DNA from: Natrinema versiforme JCM 10478
GTDB taxonomy: Archaea; Halobacteriota; Halobacteria; Halobacteriales; Natrialbaceae
DNA length: 59,251 nt
Assembly: GCF_000337195.1 (NCBI RefSeq)
Contig: NZ_AOID01000022.1
Span: 1-59,251 of the forward strand
Reading direction: 5' to 3'
Under the pieces are notes generated by a model, which had not been told where the DNA came from, did no database searches, and saw only the letters and a list, made by a program, of their open reading frames with translations. Position 1 is the stretch's first letter, and each line of letters starts with the position of its first letter. Below, one piece after another: positions 46,880 to 54,773 of the stretch. Position numbers and translations under genes: made by a program.

Positions 46880-46997
46880 CGCGGCCTCGAGTCCTCCCGG
46901 CCAGTGATCGATCCGATAGCGAGGCGGGGGCTCCGCTCGAGGACCGGCGAAGAGACCCGTTGCGGGTGACAGTCCCGCGCGTTCGCGGCCACGCAGC

Positions 46998-47471
46998 CTA
47001 CCGTTCGTCGCGTCGCTCCGTCCGGTCCGCTCGCTCTCCTCGATCGGCCTCCTCGTCCGCCGTATCGATGTCCCCGCGTCGTAGTTCACAGAGGGTCGCG
47101 AGGCGTTCGGCGCGCTGGATGAGCAGCGCGTGCCCGGCACCCGTCAGCCGGTAGGCAGGGAGTCGCGCGGGCAGTCCCTCGCGCCTCGCGACGAGGCCGC
47201 GGGCGACGAGCGCGCGGAGGTTCGGCTCGAGCCGGGCGCGACTGACCGTCGGATACCGGCGCTCGAGCGTCGCGATGAGCCCCGCGGGAGACCGCGGGCG
47301 GTCGTCGCGCTTGCAGCGGGCGATCGCCTCGAGACAGTCGCGTTGGAACCCGGTGAGGTCGACCCACGCGCGCCGGCCGTCGGTTATCGGGTCGTCCGGG
47401 AGCGATGCGTCTGCTCGAGCGGGAGGTTCAAGGTCCCGCGAATCGTCGTCGTGCATGGCTTTCGGTGGCAT
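46998..47471 (-). CDS. PadR-like winged-helix regulator
   Basis: A ~157-residue protein. Residues ~35-135 form a winged helix of the haloarchaeal PadR-like kind: DLTGFQRDCLEAIARCKRDD, then SPAGLIATLERRYPTVSRAR, LEPNLRALVARGLVARREGL and YRLTGAGHALLIQRAERLAT. The end is charged (ADEEADRGERADRTERRDER). ATG 47471 or 47456 are both possible; the frame extends to 47651 but that part is AT-rich and non-conserved. It is divergent from the phiH1-like regulator gene and lies at the left edge of the AT-rich island. Confidence 0.75.
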   Translation of the reverse strand: MPPKAMHDDDSRDLEPPARADASLPDDPITDGRRAWVDLTGFQRDCLEAIARCKRDDRPRSPAGLIATLERRYPTVSRARLEPNLRALVARGLVARREGLPARLPAYRLTGAGHALLIQRAERLATLCELRRGDIDTADEEADRGERADRTERRDER

Positions 47472-47687
47472 ACGGAAGCCACGCGGGCCGGTGGTAGTGA
47501 CACCGGGTCCGCATTCTCTCTCGAGGACCAACTCGGGCAGTCGTGGGTCCGTCTGGCTTCCGTTGCTCTCAGCAATGGTGTTGTGGGACTTATACTTGAT
47601 GCTATATGAGGCCAAAAAGAAGGTGTATGTTGCTATTCCTTTGCGTGCCACCTGAAGTTATGACTGGAAAGCGTGAGCACCAACTGA

Positions 47688-47954
47688 ATGCGTCCGCTGG
47701 TTTCGTGGATGACGAAGTCTGATCCTGCAATTCTCGAAATCTTCGAGAAAGCAGGGATCGCTATCCCGCCAGCGGTTGCAGAATTCAATTTGGAAGGTGT
47801 TTCAAAATCTACGATCACTAGACGCCTTCCAGTTTTGGTGGATCACGGTCTATTGGAGCAAGTAGACGAGGAACGGGGTTACTACCAAATTACGGATCAG
47901 GGTCGTGCCTATCTCGAGGGCGAATTAGAGAAGGACGACCTCGAACCATCATAA
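47688..47954 (+). CDS. phiH1-repressor-like winged-helix protein
   Basis: An 88-residue protein resembling the repressor of Halobacterium phage phiH1 and its many haloarchaeal relatives. It starts MRPLVSWMTKSDPAILEIFE, has the recognition region VSKSTITRRLPVLVDHGLLE and ends YYQITDQGRAYLEGELEKDD. This N-terminal MRP..WMT..D.AIL pattern and the C-terminal ITDxGRAYLxGxLDxxxL pattern are characteristic. Such genes often mark proviral or other mobile regions. It may control the island genes or the divergent PadR-like gene 216 bases away. A TATA-like ACTTATACTT lies near 47590. Confidence 0.85.
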   Translation: MRPLVSWMTKSDPAILEIFEKAGIAIPPAVAEFNLEGVSKSTITRRLPVLVDHGLLEQVDEERGYYQITDQGRAYLEGELEKDDLEPS

Positions 47955-48194
47955 CGAACTCGTACACACGACCTCCGAAATCCTATTTTTTCGACTTGAT
48001 AAATAGGCAATTTTCGACTACAACTAGTGTCCATGTTGATAACTCCGAGAAGAGCAGTGGTTCTATCAATGGATCACTCATGGTATACCCGCAACAAAAC
48101 GTGGTTTGTGCGATGTACAATAATTTGGATCTGTCGACATGAAATCTTATGAGATGAATTAGATATGGATAGATCTACTCTGATTCAGACAACA
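47955..48194. other. AT-rich gene-free stretch in the island
   Basis: A 240-base AT-rich gap between the convergent phiH1-like gene and the orphan gene pair. It includes a T-run (CTATTTTTTCGAC at ~47983) that could end the + strand transcript. No reading frame over 40 codons or recognisable transposase remnant is visible. Confidence 0.5.
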
Positions 48195-49112
48195 TTAAGT
48201 AAAGTCCGACAAGCTAGAAAGGTCATCATCTTTGCTTTCATCTTCATCAGATAGATATTCATTAATTGTCTCATCTTCGAACCTATCCCTCAGTGACATT
48301 AGGTTATTTATTTTATATTTTGTAAACAAAAATCTTCCATCATCTCTCCGTTTCCGGCAGATATCGATCTTACGGAGATAGGTAAAGACATCTTCTAACT
48401 GTTTATATTTTATATTTCTTCCAAAATGGGTCTTCACGTCTTCAAAGTCTATTATTATTCCGCCGTCAGAGAGATCTGACCCTAAGACTATCTCCTCACA
48501 AATACCTAGGGCAAGAGGTTCATCATGAATATCCCTAGTCAAGTACACCAAGCTAGGTGGACTTTCTGGGACGCTGATTCCTCTTTGAAGTTGATCTAAA
48601 ACCGTGCTATTCCGAAGACTACCAGACTCCAAAGAGAGTGATGAACCAGGTGAGACGGTCGCGATACTGCTTTCTTGCTTAAGCCGTTTCAACTTCTCCC
48701 TCTGGTTGGCTGACCCAGATTGGTGATTTCTGAACTGTTCTTCTCTGAGAATTGTACAGTGATCAAACCAATCAATATCCTCTGGCTCGAGGAAATCCTC
48801 AGAAACGGGTGACCTTTTCACGTGACTTTCAACAGCTTTCAGGCTGATTTTATTGTATTTGGATAATCTCTTAATAGCTTCCTCAGATATGTTGCCGGGA
48901 CGAATAAAATCGAAGAAAATAGCAGAGTTTTCGCCAAGCAGTGTGTAAGGGGGTTCTACATCAACACTGGTTCGTTCCCCAGGAACATACATGAAATCAC
49001 CAACCATTCTGAAGCCATGGTCTACGAGACCAGTATCTTTCTCCCCAAATACAGCAGACTTAAAGAGATTATGGGTAGTGATATGTGCTTTTTGAGTATT
49101 CCACCTATCCAT
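48195..49112 (-). CDS. Orphan protein B of the island gene pair
   Basis: A 305-residue protein with no domain I recognise. It starts MDRWNTQKAHITTHNLFKSA. Residues ~55-100 form an ordered region (YTLLGENSAIFFDFIRPGNI, then a helix EEAIKRLSKYNKISLKAVES). Residues ~205-270 look like a folded C-terminal domain, possibly winged-helix (DFEDVKTHFGRNIKYKQLED, VFTYLRKIDICRKRRDDGRF). The last 20 residues are acidic. Unlike the neighbours it is rich in Lys, Asn and Ile, as expected for transferred DNA. Its ATG directly follows the stop of the upstream gene, so the two are translationally coupled. Confidence 0.7.
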   Translation of the reverse strand: MDRWNTQKAHITTHNLFKSAVFGEKDTGLVDHGFRMVGDFMYVPGERTSVDVEPPYTLLGENSAIFFDFIRPGNISEEAIKRLSKYNKISLKAVESHVKRSPVSEDFLEPEDIDWFDHCTILREEQFRNHQSGSANQREKLKRLKQESSIATVSPGSSLSLESGSLRNSTVLDQLQRGISVPESPPSLVYLTRDIHDEPLALGICEEIVLGSDLSDGGIIIDFEDVKTHFGRNIKYKQLEDVFTYLRKIDICRKRRDDGRFLFTKYKINNLMSLRDRFEDETINEYLSDEDESKDDDLSSLSDFT

Positions 49113-50369
49113 TTATGCTCTCACCTTTTTAGAAACTCTGTTGATTTTATATGAGGAGTTAAACTCGTCGTCAATTATCTGATAGAAGTCTCTTAAACCC
49201 TCTTTAGTCGTATTTGACCGAGAATATACCTTCAAGTCTTTGTCAGAGACAACTACCTCAAAAGATAGACCTCTCTCAGAATCATACACTAAGTAATGGT
49301 TTTGTCCAATAGACGAATATCGGTACCTCTGTTTATAGTCTAAGATATCTTCTTTAAGACTTTCAGCGACTGAAGCATCTGTAGGATAGGCATCATCCTC
49401 AACCTCTTCTTCAAATATACATATTGTAAGACCATCAAGTACGCTTCCCTGATCAGCATCGCGTAGTTTTTCAGATATCCCACCATCTGTTTCGCTCTTA
49501 TCGTCAGAATCCTCTAACGTGAGCTGAGATAAGAAGATATGATCACCAGGAGTCAATCGTTCAGGACGGTGTTCAACCTCAAAATTTTCTTGATCTTTGG
49601 TCTCACAGGTTTCAATTAGATCTTCAATCACATCCAACCCAACATCATCGGAACCAGAACGCACTCTTGGGACTGAGGCATATCCTTCTTGACTTACAGT
49701 TCCTTTCACAGCCTCTGCGGGACTATTTCGCTGTCCGAAAACAACCCTCTTTGCTCTGGCATCGAAGTTATCTTGAACTTTATCTAAATGTTCTTCTGAA
49801 CCACCATGAACCTGTACGCTTATATACTCATCTTTAAAGAAGGGTTCGTATTTTGCAGTAAATCCAGACAAGTCTCTTTTTTCATACTCATCAACTATTT
49901 CGCGGAGATTCTCTGAGCTAAGGAATATGCGGTCAAGTTGCGGCAAATACCGGATTAGTTTCTCAATGGTATCCTCAGCAATGCTCTTTTTGACTATAGT
50001 TAGTGCTTTGAGATATTCTCCGTCATTGATTAACAAGAACTCTTCGTCTGTGTTGTATTTTGGATTCGATATCACCAATAACGAAGCCTCTTCGTTAACT
50101 GGTTCGACAGAGAAGGAGTGGTTTTCAAAGAACTCCCGTGGATTTTTGTTTATATCCTCTTCCTCCAATAAGTTTTGGAGCGATTTGCTGAGATCGTCAG
50201 GGACAAATCCGTTATTAGCAGCAATGTATATTTTCAATTCAGTTGATTTTTTTTTGCTTTCTCTCCCCTCCTCTTCAATCTGTTTGTCGGTTTTGGTGAC
50301 AAACTCTACGAATTCCTCTAGTAGTTCCTCTGTCGGCGTACCCTCTAAATTCCGATTTTTAAACATCAA
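49113..50369 (-). CDS. Orphan protein A of the island gene pair
   Basis: A 418-residue, acidic, soluble protein without recognisable domain, signal peptide or TM segment. An N-terminal helical region (TPTEELLEEFVEFVTKTDKQ) precedes an alpha/beta section (~45-240) with strands such as LKIYIAANNGF, ASLLVISNPKYN and DEYISVQVHGGSEEHLDKVQ, the last followed by RAKRVVFGQRNSPAEAVKG. A second section (~260-410) has ERLTPGDHIFLSQLTLEDSD, GLTICIFEEEV and the end KINRVSKKVRA. It is the first gene of the pair; no gap separates its TAA from the next ATG. Function unknown. Confidence 0.7.
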   Translation of the reverse strand: MMFKNRNLEGTPTEELLEEFVEFVTKTDKQIEEEGRESKKKSTELKIYIAANNGFVPDDLSKSLQNLLEEEDINKNPREFFENHSFSVEPVNEEASLLVISNPKYNTDEEFLLINDGEYLKALTIVKKSIAEDTIEKLIRYLPQLDRIFLSSENLREIVDEYEKRDLSGFTAKYEPFFKDEYISVQVHGGSEEHLDKVQDNFDARAKRVVFGQRNSPAEAVKGTVSQEGYASVPRVRSGSDDVGLDVIEDLIETCETKDQENFEVEHRPERLTPGDHIFLSQLTLEDSDDKSETDGGISEKLRDADQGSVLDGLTICIFEEEVEDDAYPTDASVAESLKEDILDYKQRYRYSSIGQNHYLVYDSERGLSFEVVVSDKDLKVYSRSNTTKEGLRDFYQIIDDEFNSSYKINRVSKKVRA

Positions 50370-50485
50370 TGTGGGCCACCATCCCTGGTCGTCTTGTACC
50401 TTATATTAGAGTCCTGTATATATATCGGTTGGCTATACGGTCAAAGTGAATCTTGCCAATGAGAGGGCTATAGTTGATTCGAACG

Positions 50486-51304
50486 TCAGCTACTCTGGTA
50501 TTTGTAGAGGTGATAATCATTCACTCCTAGGTTAGACACCATTTCTTTCAGCTCACAAATTTTTATTTCCTGCTTAGAACCTGTTGCGGTTTTATATTTA
50601 ACGTAGATTGTAATCTTCACTTCATTTGTTCCGGTAGCGGAATTATTATCTGACTTTTCAATTGCCTGTAAGGCAGTATGGATATGAACTTCTCTAATCT
50701 CTTTATCCCGCTTAAGAAGTCCTGTCTTCTCTATTTTTCTAACCTTTGGACTCGCATAAAATTCAGTGGGTTCATTATGTGATTCAGATAATGCCCCGCC
50801 AACATCGGTTGGCCACCAAGTTCCTTCAGAAGTCCTCTGAAGAGGAACAGAATGTGAATAAAAGGTGATGTCAGCTGGTTCTGCACAGGAGCCTATTTCT
50901 GTTTTAAGCCTCAAATCCCTAGCCGTAGAATTACCGCTATTCATGATGTTCATATAATACTTGTTCGCCTCGTGAGGTTCGAGATCAATATTATCGTTTC
51001 TCTCGTTCCCCCATTCACTCGATGTCACTCCAAGTATCGGGGTATACCCTGCGTTCATTATCGATTCCTGTCTTGACATTAATTCATGCTGTGAATCTTG
51101 AACTAGATACTGCATGAGATATGCTATTAATAGGAAACCCGAGATTAGAACAGATAGCACACTATCATTCTTGTCAGCGAAGTCAAGTTCATTATTTGAA
51201 AGTATTTCACCACTAAGGACAACATGATCAACGATAAATACAGATATCGAAGCTATAACAACAAACAGCAAAATTTGCGAGATTGTTCTGCTACTAATCC
51301 CCAT
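50486..51304 (-). CDS. Two-TM membrane protein with soluble beta domain
   Basis: A 272-residue protein. TM segments lie at ~9-30 (ISQILLFVVIASISVFIVDH) and ~49-68 (VLSVLISGFLLIAYLMQYLV). The rest (~85-272) is a soluble, probably beta-rich domain containing YYMNIMNSGNSTARDLRLKT. An N-x-G-x-x-x-A stretch of this kind recurs in uncharacterised proteins with two N-terminal TM segments. Composition is AT-type, like the orphan pair. It is transcribed toward that pair with 116 bases between them, so it may be in the same unit. Confidence 0.65.
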   Translation of the reverse strand: MGISSRTISQILLFVVIASISVFIVDHVVLSGEILSNNELDFADKNDSVLSVLISGFLLIAYLMQYLVQDSQHELMSRQESIMNAGYTPILGVTSSEWGNERNDNIDLEPHEANKYYMNIMNSGNSTARDLRLKTEIGSCAEPADITFYSHSVPLQRTSEGTWWPTDVGGALSESHNEPTEFYASPKVRKIEKTGLLKRDKEIREVHIHTALQAIEKSDNNSATGTNEVKITIYVKYKTATGSKQEIKICELKEMVSNLGVNDYHLYKYQSS

Positions 51305-51623
51305 ATGCTTTGCTTAGCCCTATCTATTTTAAATCCTATGTTCATTCCATACTTCATCCATCGTTTAAATATATCTGTTAACTGATCAGCGGAGAGAACT
51401 ACTTCTATGAAAGCAGAGGGTAGCTTTGTCTCATGAGGACCTCTTTTGTGCGCATCATCTCGAGATCTTCGCTTGGAAGTAGAGTGGGACACTGTGATTT
51501 TTGACACTGCCTTGGGGACACAGCCACGAGTCCGGTAATCGATTGGGACCCATCTCTTGATTCTGTGTTGTAATTTGACCTCTGATTGTTCTAGCACATC
51601 AGACCGTATCGGCCCAAATCAGT
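51305..51623. other. Right border region of the island, no convincing gene
   Basis: A 319-base gap between the two-TM gene and the glucoamylase-like gene. A minus-strand frame of 114 codons (51253-51597) covers it but overlaps the start of the two-TM gene out of frame and lacks recognisable features. GC content rises sharply near 51600-51660, marking the island border. A degraded gene cannot be excluded. Confidence 0.5.
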
Positions 51624-52679
51624 TCATTCGGAGACCGGATCAGTAAACAGATCCGCAGCCCCCGATATCCCCGACAACGCATCAGCAGCCAGCACCGCAG
51701 CCCCGCCGGTCCACGTCGGCCGCTCGCCGGGCCAGAACGCCTCGTCCTCGAACTGGTAGCCCGTCCAGAAGACCCCCTCGTCGTCGGTCCACTGGAACAG
51801 CCACTCGTAGATCTCACGCGCACGCTCCACCCGCCCCACCGCGGCAAGTGAAACCACGAGTTCGCAGGACTCGGCGACGGTCACCCACGGCTCGTCCGCG
51901 ACGCAGCGACAGCCCAAGCCCTCCTCGAGAAAGCGATCCATCCCGTCTGCGAGCCGCTCTTGCGCCGGGTCGCCGGTCACCACGCCACAGAGGACCGGAT
52001 AGAACCAGTCCATCGCGTAGCGGGACTTGCTCTCCCACGTGCGGTCGAACCGGTCGGGTCGCTCGCGGATCGCCGCCCCGAGTCGGGTGCGGGCCTCGAG
52101 CCACCGGTCTCGAGCGGCGGCGTGCTCGAGTTCGGCCGCGATGGCCGCCCCGCAGGCCAGGCTCTTGTACAGCGAGGCGCAGCCGGCGATCAGGGCGTCC
52201 TCGTAGACCGCGCCGTCCGCGCCGACGGTCCAGTAGATTTCGCCGGTCGGGGCCTGCTGGCGGCACGCGAACGCGAGGGCGTCCCGAACCGTGGGCCACA
52301 GCGACTCGAGGAAGTCCCGGTCGCCGGTACACAGGTAGTGGTGCCACGCGCCGACGGCGACGTAGGCGCTCCGGTGGGTCTCCTTGCGCGGCTCGTCGCC
52401 GTCGTGGGCACCCTCCTCGCCGTCGGCGTCGCCGTAGGTCGCCCACAGCGCGCCGTCGTCGTGCTGGGCGTCGGCGATCCAGCGGTAGGCGCGTTCGGCG
52501 GCCTCGCGGCGGCCGGCGACCGACAGCGCCATCGCGCTCTCGACGTGATCCCACGGGTCCGCCGGCCCGTCGGGGTACCAGCAAATGAGCCCGTCCGATC
52601 GCTGCACCCGCTGGATGTAGTCGACCGCGGGCTCGAGCCCCCAGTCCGAAAGCGACGCCCGCGACGGGCCGTCGCTCAC
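51624..52679 (-). CDS. Glucoamylase-like (six-hairpin, GH15-type) protein
   Basis: A 351-residue protein with the alpha/alpha-barrel signature of GH15-like glycosidases: DGLICWYPDGPADPWDHVES, then HDDGALWATYGDAD, the helix pair around HRSAYVAVGAWHHYLCTGDR, and YEDALIAGCASLYKSLACGA. It lacks a clear signal peptide, so it may act inside the cell or on lipid-linked glycans. In other haloarchaea similar proteins sit beside glycosyltransferases. GTG 52679 overlaps the methyltransferase stop (GTGA), making it the third gene of the GT-MT-GH operon. Enzyme activity is inferred from fold pattern only. Confidence 0.78.
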   Translation of the reverse strand: MSDGPSRASLSDWGLEPAVDYIQRVQRSDGLICWYPDGPADPWDHVESAMALSVAGRREAAERAYRWIADAQHDDGALWATYGDADGEEGAHDGDEPRKETHRSAYVAVGAWHHYLCTGDRDFLESLWPTVRDALAFACRQQAPTGEIYWTVGADGAVYEDALIAGCASLYKSLACGAAIAAELEHAAARDRWLEARTRLGAAIRERPDRFDRTWESKSRYAMDWFYPVLCGVVTGDPAQERLADGMDRFLEEGLGCRCVADEPWVTVAESCELVVSLAAVGRVERAREIYEWLFQWTDDEGVFWTGYQFEDEAFWPGERPTWTGGAAVLAADALSGISGAADLFTDPVSE

Positions 52680-53398
52680 GCCTGCCCCTCCAACTCGAAG
52701 TAGTAGACGACGCTCTTGCCCAGCGCGGGATCGAGCGCCCGCTCGAGCAGCCGCACCGGCCGCGGCGATTCCAGCACGTCCCACTCGAGGAAGCGGTCGT
52801 AGGCCCGCAGGGGCAGCGGCGGCTCGCCGCGCTCGTCGCGGTCCCACCAGAGGCACTTCAGCCACCAGTACGGCGAGTGCAGCGCGTGGGCGAAGTGACT
52901 GTCAACTCGCCGAAACCCGCGCCGTTCGACGGCGGCCCGCAACTCCTCGCGGTCAAAGATGCGGACGTGCCCGCCCTCGACCGCGTGGTACTCGTCCGAG
53001 AGCGCCCAGCAAACCCGTTCGGGCCCCTCCCGCGGGACGCTGACCGCGAGCGTTCCCCCCGGCGCACAGACTCGACGCAGTTCGTCGATCGCGGACTCGT
53101 AGTCGGGCAGATGTTCCAAGACCTCGGTACAGCAGACGACGTCGAACGCGCCGTCCGCGAAGGGGAGCCGGAGCGCGTCGCCGGACAGAAAGGTGACCGG
53201 CACGTCCGTCTCCGGGGCGATGTACTCCTCGTAGTCTTCCCGGGCCGCCTCCAGGTTGTTCCGTCCGAGGTCGAGGCCGACGACCTCCGCGACGTTCTCG
53301 AGGGCGGCGGCGTGGACGTGTCGGCCCTCGCCACAGCCCACGTCGAGGACGCGCATGCCCGGCGTCAATGTCAGCCGGTCGAAATCGATCGTCTCCAT
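52676..53398 (-). CDS. Class I SAM-dependent methyltransferase
   Basis: A 240-residue Methyltransf_11-type enzyme. Motif I is VLDVGCGEGRHVHAAALE (residues ~18-35), then the acidic VVGLDLGRNNLEAARED, motif near LSGDALRLPFADGAFDVVCC and LRRVCAPGGTLAVSVPRE. It should use SAM to methylate a small molecule or a glycan; the acceptor is unknown. ATG 53398 lies 1 base after the glycosyltransferase stop, and its own stop overlaps the next gene, so the three proteins are made together. Confidence 0.88.
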   Translation of the reverse strand: METIDFDRLTLTPGMRVLDVGCGEGRHVHAAALENVAEVVGLDLGRNNLEAAREDYEEYIAPETDVPVTFLSGDALRLPFADGAFDVVCCTEVLEHLPDYESAIDELRRVCAPGGTLAVSVPREGPERVCWALSDEYHAVEGGHVRIFDREELRAAVERRGFRRVDSHFAHALHSPYWWLKCLWWDRDERGEPPLPLRAYDRFLEWDVLESPRPVRLLERALDPALGKSVVYYFELEGQA

Positions 53399-53399
53399 C

Positions 53400-54773
53400 T
53401 CAGGCCCCGCTCCCCTGCGTTTCGATCGCGTCGCGGTACGTGCGAACCGTCTCCCGGGCGGCCTGTTCCCAGTCGAACTCCTCGACGATGCGCTCCCGAC
53501 CCCGCTCGCTGAGTTGCCGGCGGCGCTCGTCGTCCGCGAGCAGGTCGCCGATTGCCTCGGCCAGCGCGTCGGAATCGCCCGGTTCCACGAGGACGCCGGC
53601 GTCGCCGACCACCTCCGGGAGGCCGCCGCCGGTGGTCGCCACCACCGGCACGCCACAGGCGAGCGCCTCGCCCGCGGGGAGGCCGAAGCCCTCGTAGATC
53701 GAGGGGACGACGGCCACGTCGGCGGTCCCGTAGAGCTCGACCATCCGCTCGTAGCTGATCTCGCTGTGGGTCTCGATCGCGTCCGCGATGCCCAGTTCCG
53801 AGACGAGTTGGTCGCAGTCGCCGCCCTCGTCGAACTCGCCGACAACGACCAGTTCGGCGTCGATCGAGTCCCGAACGGCCGCGAACGCCTCGAGCAGGTG
53901 CCGCGTCCCCTTTAGGGGAACGTCGGCGCTGACCGTCGTCATCACGCGCGGGCGATCGGCGCTCCGATCGACGGGCTCGAACAGGTCGGTGTCGATGCCG
54001 TTGTGGACGACGCGGATCGCGTCGGGGTCGGCACCGAAATCGGTGACGGTGCGGCGTTTGGCCGACTCGGAGACGGTCAGGACGTGGGGTAGCTCTCGGA
54101 CCACCTCGCGTTGCATCCGGAGGAACCGGTACCACCGGCGGATCAACAGCCGCTCGCCCCAGTCGTCGGCCGCGGCGAGGTCGGCGTCGCGGTCGACGGT
54201 GATCGGGTGGTGGACCGTCGCCACGACGGGGTGGCCCCGCTCGCGGAGCGTGTGGAGGCCGTGACAGAGCGACTGGTTGTCGTGGATCACGTCGTACTCG
54301 GGCTCACACTCCTCGAAGTAGTCGACGACCTGCCGCCCGAAGACGTAGGGGTCCGGAAAGCCGCCGGTGAGCGCGCTCAGCCATTCGTATAGCGCGAGCG
54401 GGTCGCGGAGATAGGATGCTTCGAACTGCCCCAGCCGATCGAGTTCGTCGACGACGTTCTCGCCGGGCAGTTTCACCAGCCCCACGTCGTCGTTGAGTTC
54501 GGGGTAGGGCTTCCCCGAAATCACGTCCACGGAGTGGCCGAGGTCGGTCAGTGCTCGGCTCAGGTATTTCACGTAGACACCTTGCCCACCCGAATACGGG
54601 TTGGAGCGATAACTCAGGAGACAGATATCGAGCGGATCGTCGGGACGACGCTCCGCCTCGGATGACGGCACCGACGACGACTCCGTCGGTCCCGCGGCGG
54701 TCGTTCCCGTCGCCGACGCGGACGAAGAAATCACGCTCCCCGGGAGAAGCCGTCTCAGCGTACCAGTGACCAT
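53400..54773 (-). CDS. Glycosyltransferase family 4 protein
   Basis: A 457-residue GT-B enzyme. The N-terminal Rossmann domain begins at ~47 (LDICLLSYRSNPYSGGQGVY, the acceptor-side GG motif). The C-terminal donor domain has VPLKGTRHLLEAF and the EX7E motif in PSIYEGFGLPAGEALACGVP with VVATTGGGLPEVVGDAGVLV. About 45 Ser/Thr/Pro-rich residues precede the fold, so a later start is possible. It probably transfers a hexose from a nucleotide sugar in surface-glycan assembly. First gene of the GT-MT-GH15-like operon. Confidence 0.88.
   Translation of the reverse strand: MVTGTLRRLLPGSVISSSASATGTTAAGPTESSSVPSSEAERRPDDPLDICLLSYRSNPYSGGQGVYVKYLSRALTDLGHSVDVISGKPYPELNDDVGLVKLPGENVVDELDRLGQFEASYLRDPLALYEWLSALTGGFPDPYVFGRQVVDYFEECEPEYDVIHDNQSLCHGLHTLRERGHPVVATVHHPITVDRDADLAAADDWGERLLIRRWYRFLRMQREVVRELPHVLTVSESAKRRTVTDFGADPDAIRVVHNGIDTDLFEPVDRSADRPRVMTTVSADVPLKGTRHLLEAFAAVRDSIDAELVVVGEFDEGGDCDQLVSELGIADAIETHSEISYERMVELYGTADVAVVPSIYEGFGLPAGEALACGVPVVATTGGGLPEVVGDAGVLVEPGDSDALAEAIGDLLADDERRRQLSERGRERIVEEFDWEQAARETVRTYRDAIETQGSGA

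What the first reader, a model, noticed from the sequence alone, without database searches (positions are those of the whole stretch)
48195..50369. Directly joined orphan gene pair: candidate undescribed two-gene system
Protein A (418 residues) ends in TAA and protein B (305 residues) starts at the next base, so they are translated together. Neither shows a motif known to me. A is soluble and mixed alpha/beta; B has a possible winged-helix end. Strict coupling inside an AT-rich island is what an undescribed defence, toxin-antitoxin-like or element-maintenance module would look like.
Basis: inference. Interest (0 to 1): 0.62.

Follow-up and report, generated by a model that had tools for sequence, protein, structure and literature searches.

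The report
Haloarchaeal nuclease-pair system, membrane-effector variant
Two back-to-back genes of unknown family in a salt-loving archaeon belong to a module found in many relatives, in which the second gene is normally a DNA-cutting enzyme; here that enzyme has lost its active site and a membrane-protein gene sits beside the pair, as if the module had swapped one weapon for another.

Summary
In detail: A (417-418 aa) and B (305 aa) abut exactly. Neither has a Pfam, NCBIfam, PADLOC or PHROG match. A and B always occur together: 31 haloarchaeal-type loci, same order, gap -4 to +5 bp in 30. B is not motif-less as a family. An AlphaFold model of an intact relative shows an N-terminal PD-(D/E)XK nuclease fold and a C-terminal winged helix, and in 23 loci the catalytic set E, P-D, E-x-K, Q is invariant. 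In the window and seven other loci all five catalytic positions have changed. Those eight, and only those, carry a third gene C just upstream (window 50486-51304; two predicted transmembrane helices plus a soluble domain) and a longer A. Inactive B is still under purifying selection (dN/dS about 0.05 in one pair). A ends in a KA1/TBP-like domain. The genes fill a variable cargo slot (48054-51617) whose flanks are conserved in sister species. Best reading: an undescribed two-gene nuclease system, probably anti-virus or anti-element, here in a derived three-gene form where a membrane protein replaces the nuclease as effector. Defence is inferred, not shown: a neighbourhood test against controls was inconclusive, and there were only one or two independent switches.

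The parts
50486..51304 (-). Gene C, 272 aa: two predicted transmembrane helices (about residues 8-30 and 48-70) then a ~200-aa soluble domain; present only with catalytically dead B
   Evidence: (hydropathy); close homologues (>340 bits) only at dead-B loci
49113..50369 (-). Gene A, 417 aa from ATG 50366 (418 aa from TTG 50369)
49737..50237 (-). A, N-terminal alpha/beta domain (about residues 44-210), best conserved part (GFTAKY, R, NSP motifs); fold not identified
49452..49559 (-). A, linker insertion (about residues 270-305) specific to the C-bearing/dead-B loci
   Evidence: A is 417-437 aa in 8 loci, 381-391 aa in 23
49128..49439 (-). A, C-terminal KA1/TBP-like domain (about residues 310-413); also exists as a stand-alone ~130-aa protein in many haloarchaea
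48195..49112 (-). Gene B, 305 aa: inactive PD-(D/E)XK-family protein with a C-terminal winged helix
48573..49112 (-). B, PD-(D/E)XK-fold domain (about residues 1-180, mapped from the model of the intact homologue L059)
48897..48953 (-). B, degenerate core of the active site: residues 54-72 PPYTLLGENSAIFFDFIRP; catalytic D, E, K replaced by P55, D68, I70 (also H10 for E and R82 for Q)
48264..48524 (-). B, winged-helix domain (about residues 197-283)
48054..51617 (.). Variable AT-rich cargo slot holding C-A-B; both flanks conserved in sister species that carry other cargo

Best explanation
The window holds a derived, three-gene form (C-A-B) of an undescribed haloarchaeal module whose basic form is two genes, A-B. 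In the basic form A is a two-domain partner (sensor, scaffold or regulator) and B is a PD-(D/E)XK nuclease with a winged helix that I take to bind DNA. The two are co-translated and most likely act as one complex that cuts invading or damaged nucleic acid. In the window's form B has lost its whole active site but is kept, I infer as the recognition/adaptor subunit. The membrane protein C takes over the output, either by disturbing the membrane when A-B fires or by holding A-B at the membrane. The longer A linker may be where A meets C. Shown here: A-B pairing and adjacency, loss of all five catalytic positions in B, exact match between dead B, C and longer A, purifying selection on one dead-B pair, cargo-slot location. 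Inferred: complex formation, nuclease activity of intact B, role of C, and antiviral or anti-element purpose.
For: A-B co-occurrence and spacing. Nuclease fold of intact B, model pLDDT 82: XisH Z 10.2 over 122 residues, then AF2093, BsmI, Can2 and Bax1 at Z 7.7-8.2 (Foldseek lists the same kinds). Winged helix at 193-281, BusR Z 9.2. E13, D58, E71, K73 and Q85 invariant in the intact homologues and all replaced in 8. C within 75-130 bp upstream of A in 7 of those 8 loci, IS-split in the eighth, and in none of the 23 intact loci. Close homologues of C found only at these loci among 391 genomes. A is 417-437 aa in exactly the same 8 and 381-391 aa in the rest. Dead-B pair L047/L049 dN 0.036, dS 0.69. 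Cargo slot. Known defence-type genes within 5 kb in L050, L098, L103, L104, L111 and a CRISPR array beside L111. Systems that swap a nuclease for a membrane effector are known: partners of inactive archaeal Argonautes carry TM, TIR, HEPN or PD-(D/E)XK domains (PMC10954474).
Against: The dead-B/C/long-A association rests on one or two evolutionary events, so it is a clean correlation, not many independent tests. Control neighbourhoods from the same genomes also held defence genes (116 PADLOC families against 284), so defence enrichment is not shown. No viral challenge data. No PDB Foldseek hit for either protein reaches E 0.001; the model of A is weak (pLDDT 61). The window's own B was not modelled. 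dN/dS for the window's nearest pairs is not measurable (synonymous sites saturated).
Confidence: 0.5

Rival explanations
1. The module works like Kiwa: C is a membrane sensor of virus entry and A-B is a DNA-binding complex that blocks the incoming genome without cutting it. Dead B is then the blocker, not an adaptor.
For: Membrane protein plus non-cutting DNA-binding partner is the Kiwa layout (KwaA/KwaB, PMC12904381). B keeps its winged helix while losing catalysis.
Against: No PADLOC or Pfam match of A, B or C to any defence family. To my knowledge Kiwa has no relative with an active nuclease subunit in the same place, as A-B has.
Confidence: 0.2
2. A toxin-antitoxin or abortive-infection pair: B is a toxin nuclease restrained by A. 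In the window's branch the toxin is dead and C is the new toxin.
For: Two co-translated genes, one a nuclease. A's model shows a weak match to the RnlA toxin that spans both its domains (6y2s, Z 6.8, rmsd 14.7), although only to RnlA's N-terminal part (residues 5-196).
Against: A is larger than typical antitoxins and more conserved than B. B was not seen without A. No toxicity data.
Confidence: 0.12
3. A maintenance, repair or transfer function of mobile cargo (for example DNA processing of the island itself), not defence.
For: Variable cargo slot; four of 126 neighbouring proteins are integrases; some copies on megaplasmids; best fold match of B is XisH, named for control of DNA-element excision.
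Against: I saw no conserved recombinase travelling with A-B in the neighbourhood lists; no match in 50,697 phage records or in the viral contigs. Loss of the active site with gain of a membrane protein is hard to fit to DNA processing.
Confidence: 0.13
4. The window copy is a decaying remnant: B lost its active site by relaxed selection and C is a chance neighbour.
For: Active-site residues lost; one sister locus has a frameshifted B (L048) and another an IS in C (L049).
Against: Open frames kept in seven of eight loci over divergences down to 23% identity; dN/dS about 0.05 in L047/L049; C in the same place and orientation in every dead-B locus; dead B has its own conserved residues (R in place of the catalytic Q in all eight; H in place of the catalytic E in four).
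Confidence: 0.05

Closest known systems
PD-(D/E)XK nuclease superfamily (XisH, Can2/Cdn1 effectors, Bax1, BsmI, EndoMS)
   Same: Fold of B's first ~180 residues and, in 23 of 31 loci, the PD...ExK core with upstream E and downstream Q
   Different: No sequence-family match. The window copy lacks the catalytic D, E, K, Q. Fused to a winged helix and tied to the partner A
SiAgo/Aga1/Aga2 and AfAgo-type split Argonaute systems of archaea (PMC10954474, PMC11014256)
   Same: Logic: a catalytically dead nucleic-acid-binding pair coupled to a membrane protein; partners interchange between TM and PD-(D/E)XK domains
   Different: No Argonaute-type match in A or B; here the dead subunit is itself a former PD-(D/E)XK nuclease
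Kiwa (KwaA-KwaB)
   Same: A membrane protein beside a DNA-binding partner that does not cut
   Different: No sequence relation found; C has two predicted TM helices; sister systems of this module have an apparently active nuclease
XisH-XisI gene pair of cyanobacteria (own knowledge for the pairing)
   Same: XisH is the best fold match of B's nuclease domain (Z 10.2); also a two-gene pair
   Different: XisH is ~130 aa with no winged helix; no resemblance of A to XisI was tested
RnlA-RnlB (LsoA-LsoB) toxin-antitoxin
   Same: A's model has a weak match to the RnlA N-terminal domains (Z about 7)
   Different: No HEPN-type RNase domain was found in A; gene sizes and partners differ

Membership tests
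PD-(D/E)XK nuclease superfamily (B) | Core alpha/beta PD-(D/E)XK fold | tested here: met
   Model of L059 B, pLDDT 82; XisH Z 10.2, rmsd 2.9, 122 aligned; AF2093, BsmI and Can2 at Z 7.8-8.2. Foldseek E-values are only about 0.01. Inferred for the window by alignment A9
PD-(D/E)XK nuclease superfamily (B) | Catalytic PD...(D/E)xK residues present in the window's B | tested here: not met
   D, E and K replaced by P55, D68 and I70; E13 and Q85 by H10 and R82. Met in 23 homologues. So the window's B is an inactive relative, not an active nuclease
Kiwa | KwaB/KwaA sequence family | tested here: not met
   No match in Pfam or PADLOC at E up to 10 for window A, B and C or E up to 1 for homologues. 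I did not verify which Kiwa models the libraries hold
Kiwa | Membrane-anchored complex that binds incoming DNA without cutting | not testable with these tools
   Needs biochemistry
Short/split prokaryotic Argonaute systems (SiAgo type) | Argonaute (MID-PIWI) subunit | tested here: not met
   No Argonaute-type family in Pfam or PADLOC scans
RnlA/LsoA toxin family | HEPN-type RNase domain after two N-terminal domains | tested here: inconclusive
   A aligns to RnlA residues 5-196 only, Z 6.8, rmsd 14.7, and no Pfam match was found. The middle of A (residues 215-314) is not resolved in the model
KA1/TBP-like fold (A C-terminus) | beta-alpha-beta4-alpha domain | tested here: met
   Residues 310-404 to KA1 of SAD kinase, Z 10.7, rmsd 2.2, 88 aligned. 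Fold only; no kinase or TBP function implied
Known anti-phage defence system (any in PADLOC 2023) | Profile match of at least one core protein | tested here: not met
   none for A, B or C
Defence function in general | Enrichment near known defence genes over control regions | tested here: inconclusive
   284 PADLOC families hit among 126 neighbours against 116 among 126 control proteins, both dominated by a few methylase-type genes

The most novel reading that the evidence does not exclude
An undescribed archaeal immune system with two interchangeable outputs: an A-B form that cuts DNA and a C-A-B form in which the nuclease became a dead adaptor and a two-TM membrane protein became the killing effector, the switch being visible across all three genes at once.
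Probability: 0.4. Interest if true: 0.75.

Novelty: new variant of a known kind. Interest (0 to 1): 0.58.

Why it matters
If right, this adds a two-gene nuclease system to haloarchaea, where the genes are named only 'hypothetical protein' (as on Haloferax mediterranei pHME505). It also gives a clean natural case of a defence-type module exchanging a nuclease for a membrane effector while keeping the dead nuclease under selection. That makes a general question testable in a genetically tractable archaeon: what a retained dead nuclease does, and how the same recognition pair drives two different outputs.

Tried and rejected
Kiwa/DUF4868 membership of A, my first hunch: no profile match. Profile search of solved-structure sequences with A or B alignments: nothing significant. 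Internal duplication of A's two domains: hhalign probability 3%. Phage records, IMG/VR viral contigs and viral protein families: no relatives. tRNA or long direct repeats at the island edges: none found, so no attachment site is claimed. Defence-gene enrichment: attempted with matched control regions, inconclusive. A last 289-genome search for independent loci gave only loci already sampled; G670 matches L099 in coordinates. A structure search of A against viral models gave mainly TBP-type and unnamed hits of low TM-score. The list of top folds for A has no KwaB or XisI row; that absence proves nothing.

Full report
Observation. Gene A (49113-50369, minus) and gene B (48195-49112, minus) are real open frames; A's TAA is directly followed by B's ATG. 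A's ATG at 50366 is the likelier start. GC falls to 40% from about 48.0 to 51.3 kb in a 65% GC background. The host is a haloarchaeon judging by its relatives.

No known family, but a real gene family. Window A, B and C have no significant match in Pfam, NCBIfam, PADLOC or PHROGs, nor do sampled homologues. Among 199 relatives, full-length A occurs in 13 genomes, B in 13, and every B lies beside A. Adding class-wide and plasmid searches gave 31 analysed loci. The order is always A then B on one strand, with a gap of -4 to +5 bp in 30 of 31. No relatives were found in phages or viral contigs.

What B is. A structure model of an intact homologue (Halorubrum lipolyticum, L059) has mean pLDDT 82. 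Its first ~180 residues match PD-(D/E)XK nucleases (XisH Z 10.2; AF2093, BsmI, Can2, Bax1, EndoMS at Z 7.4-8.2) and residues 193-281 match winged-helix regulators (BusR Z 9.2). Foldseek alone gives the same kinds of hits at weak E-values. Twenty-three loci carry an invariant catalytic set: E13 (22 of 22 with an N-terminus), P57-D58, E71-x-K73, G75, Q85 (similar list). In the window the equivalents are H10, P54-P55, D68-x-I70, P72, R82, so the active site is gone.

A matching third gene. Eight loci have this dead B: the window, L047, L048, L049, L105, L107, L109, L112. All eight, and none of the 23 others, carry gene C upstream on the same strand. C ends 75-130 bp before A in seven; in L049 C is split by an insertion sequence with a DDE transposase. 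C has two predicted transmembrane helices and a soluble domain with conserved motifs such as AGYTPxxGV and NxGNxxxxDL. A class-wide profile search for C finds its close homologues (over 340 bits) only at these loci, plus the split L049 copy; weaker, more distant relatives exist elsewhere without A-B. A is also longer in exactly these eight loci (417-437 against 381-391 aa), through extra residues between its two domains.

Is dead B kept? Yes, in the one pair where it can be measured: L047/L049 dN 0.036, dS 0.69 for B, close to the values for A. The window's nearest relatives are too distant for dS, but B stays open at 59-64% identity to them. One sister copy (L048) is frameshifted.

History. 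On the A tree the eight dead-B loci need two changes, because an intact pair (L050/L102) groups with L047-L049 (92/90 support); a single clade is not rejected (AU p 0.14). On the B tree and on a combined tree with active-site columns removed they form one group with modest support (94/88 and 73/49). So there were one or two switches. The direction active to inactive is inferred.

What A is. The model of window A is weak overall (pLDDT 61), but residues 310-413 form a beta-alpha-beta4-alpha domain that matches KA1 domains (Z 10.7) and, less well, TBP. This domain also exists alone as ~130-aa proteins in many haloarchaea. The N-terminal domain (44-210) carries most invariant residues; its fold was not identified.

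Surroundings. Sister species keep both flanks of the island (window 46976-48053 and 51618-54669, 76-94% nucleotide identity where aligned) but hold other AT-rich genes between them, so 48054-51617 is a variable cargo slot. Elsewhere A-B lies on megaplasmids or in variable regions. Strong defence-type neighbours occur in L050 (SNF2/DrmD-like helicase), L098 (DrmMI-like methylase and DUF499), L103 (Ppl-like), L104 (HEC-05 and type IIG enzyme) and L111 (Mrr-like, with a CRISPR array downstream of B). However, matched control regions also contained defence genes, so this does not prove a defence role.

Mechanism. The most likely reading is a co-translated A-B complex whose basic output is DNA cleavage by B. 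In the window's branch B is a dead adaptor and C provides the output at the membrane. A precedent for such exchange is the partners of inactive archaeal Argonautes, which carry TM, TIR, HEPN or PD-(D/E)XK domains (PMC10954474), and Aga2, which depolarises membranes (cited in PMC11014256). A Kiwa-like layout, membrane sensor plus non-cutting DNA binder (PMC12904381), is the main rival. Activity, complex formation and biological role are untested.

Noticed in passing
window 48054-51617 and L174-L178: Variable cargo slot between a small PadR-like winged-helix gene and a glycosidase-like gene; the nearest sister (G015) holds three other unannotated genes there, including two with apparent TM helices.
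   Followed up: partly
L111:12139-16000: Large CRISPR array (30-nt repeat GCTTCAACCGCACTAGCGTTCTGCTGTAAC, at least 47 copies) starting under 1 kb downstream of an A-B pair.
   Followed up: partly
L061 (NZ_JAUDRZ010000015.1, titled Rhizobium sp. S152): The A-B pair and neighbours are acidic, haloarchaeal-type proteins, so the contig looks like contamination of a bacterial assembly.
   Followed up: partly
L090-L095, L014-L016 and others: A's KA1/TBP-like domain occurs as a stand-alone ~130-aa protein in dozens of haloarchaeal genomes; the copy tested has no Pfam match.
   Followed up: partly
L048:8446-9350: B split into 238 and 64 aa by a frameshift in an otherwise near-identical copy of L047.
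   Followed up: no
L049:10600-13159: Gene C interrupted by an insertion sequence (DDE_Tnp_1 transposase).
   Followed up: yes
L140, L141, L142, L143: Distant relatives of C (TM segment plus soluble domain) occur alone, away from A-B, in other haloarchaea.
   Followed up: partly
window 50417-50426: TATA-like element (GATATATATA) about 50 bp upstream of A's ATG, so A-B may have its own promoter apart from C.
   Followed up: no
L107:3872-4882 and L109:11921-12925: Two dead-B loci share a similar ~335-aa neighbour (YQFTPDEIDR...) on different sides of the module, with no Pfam or PADLOC match for the L109 copy.
   Followed up: partly
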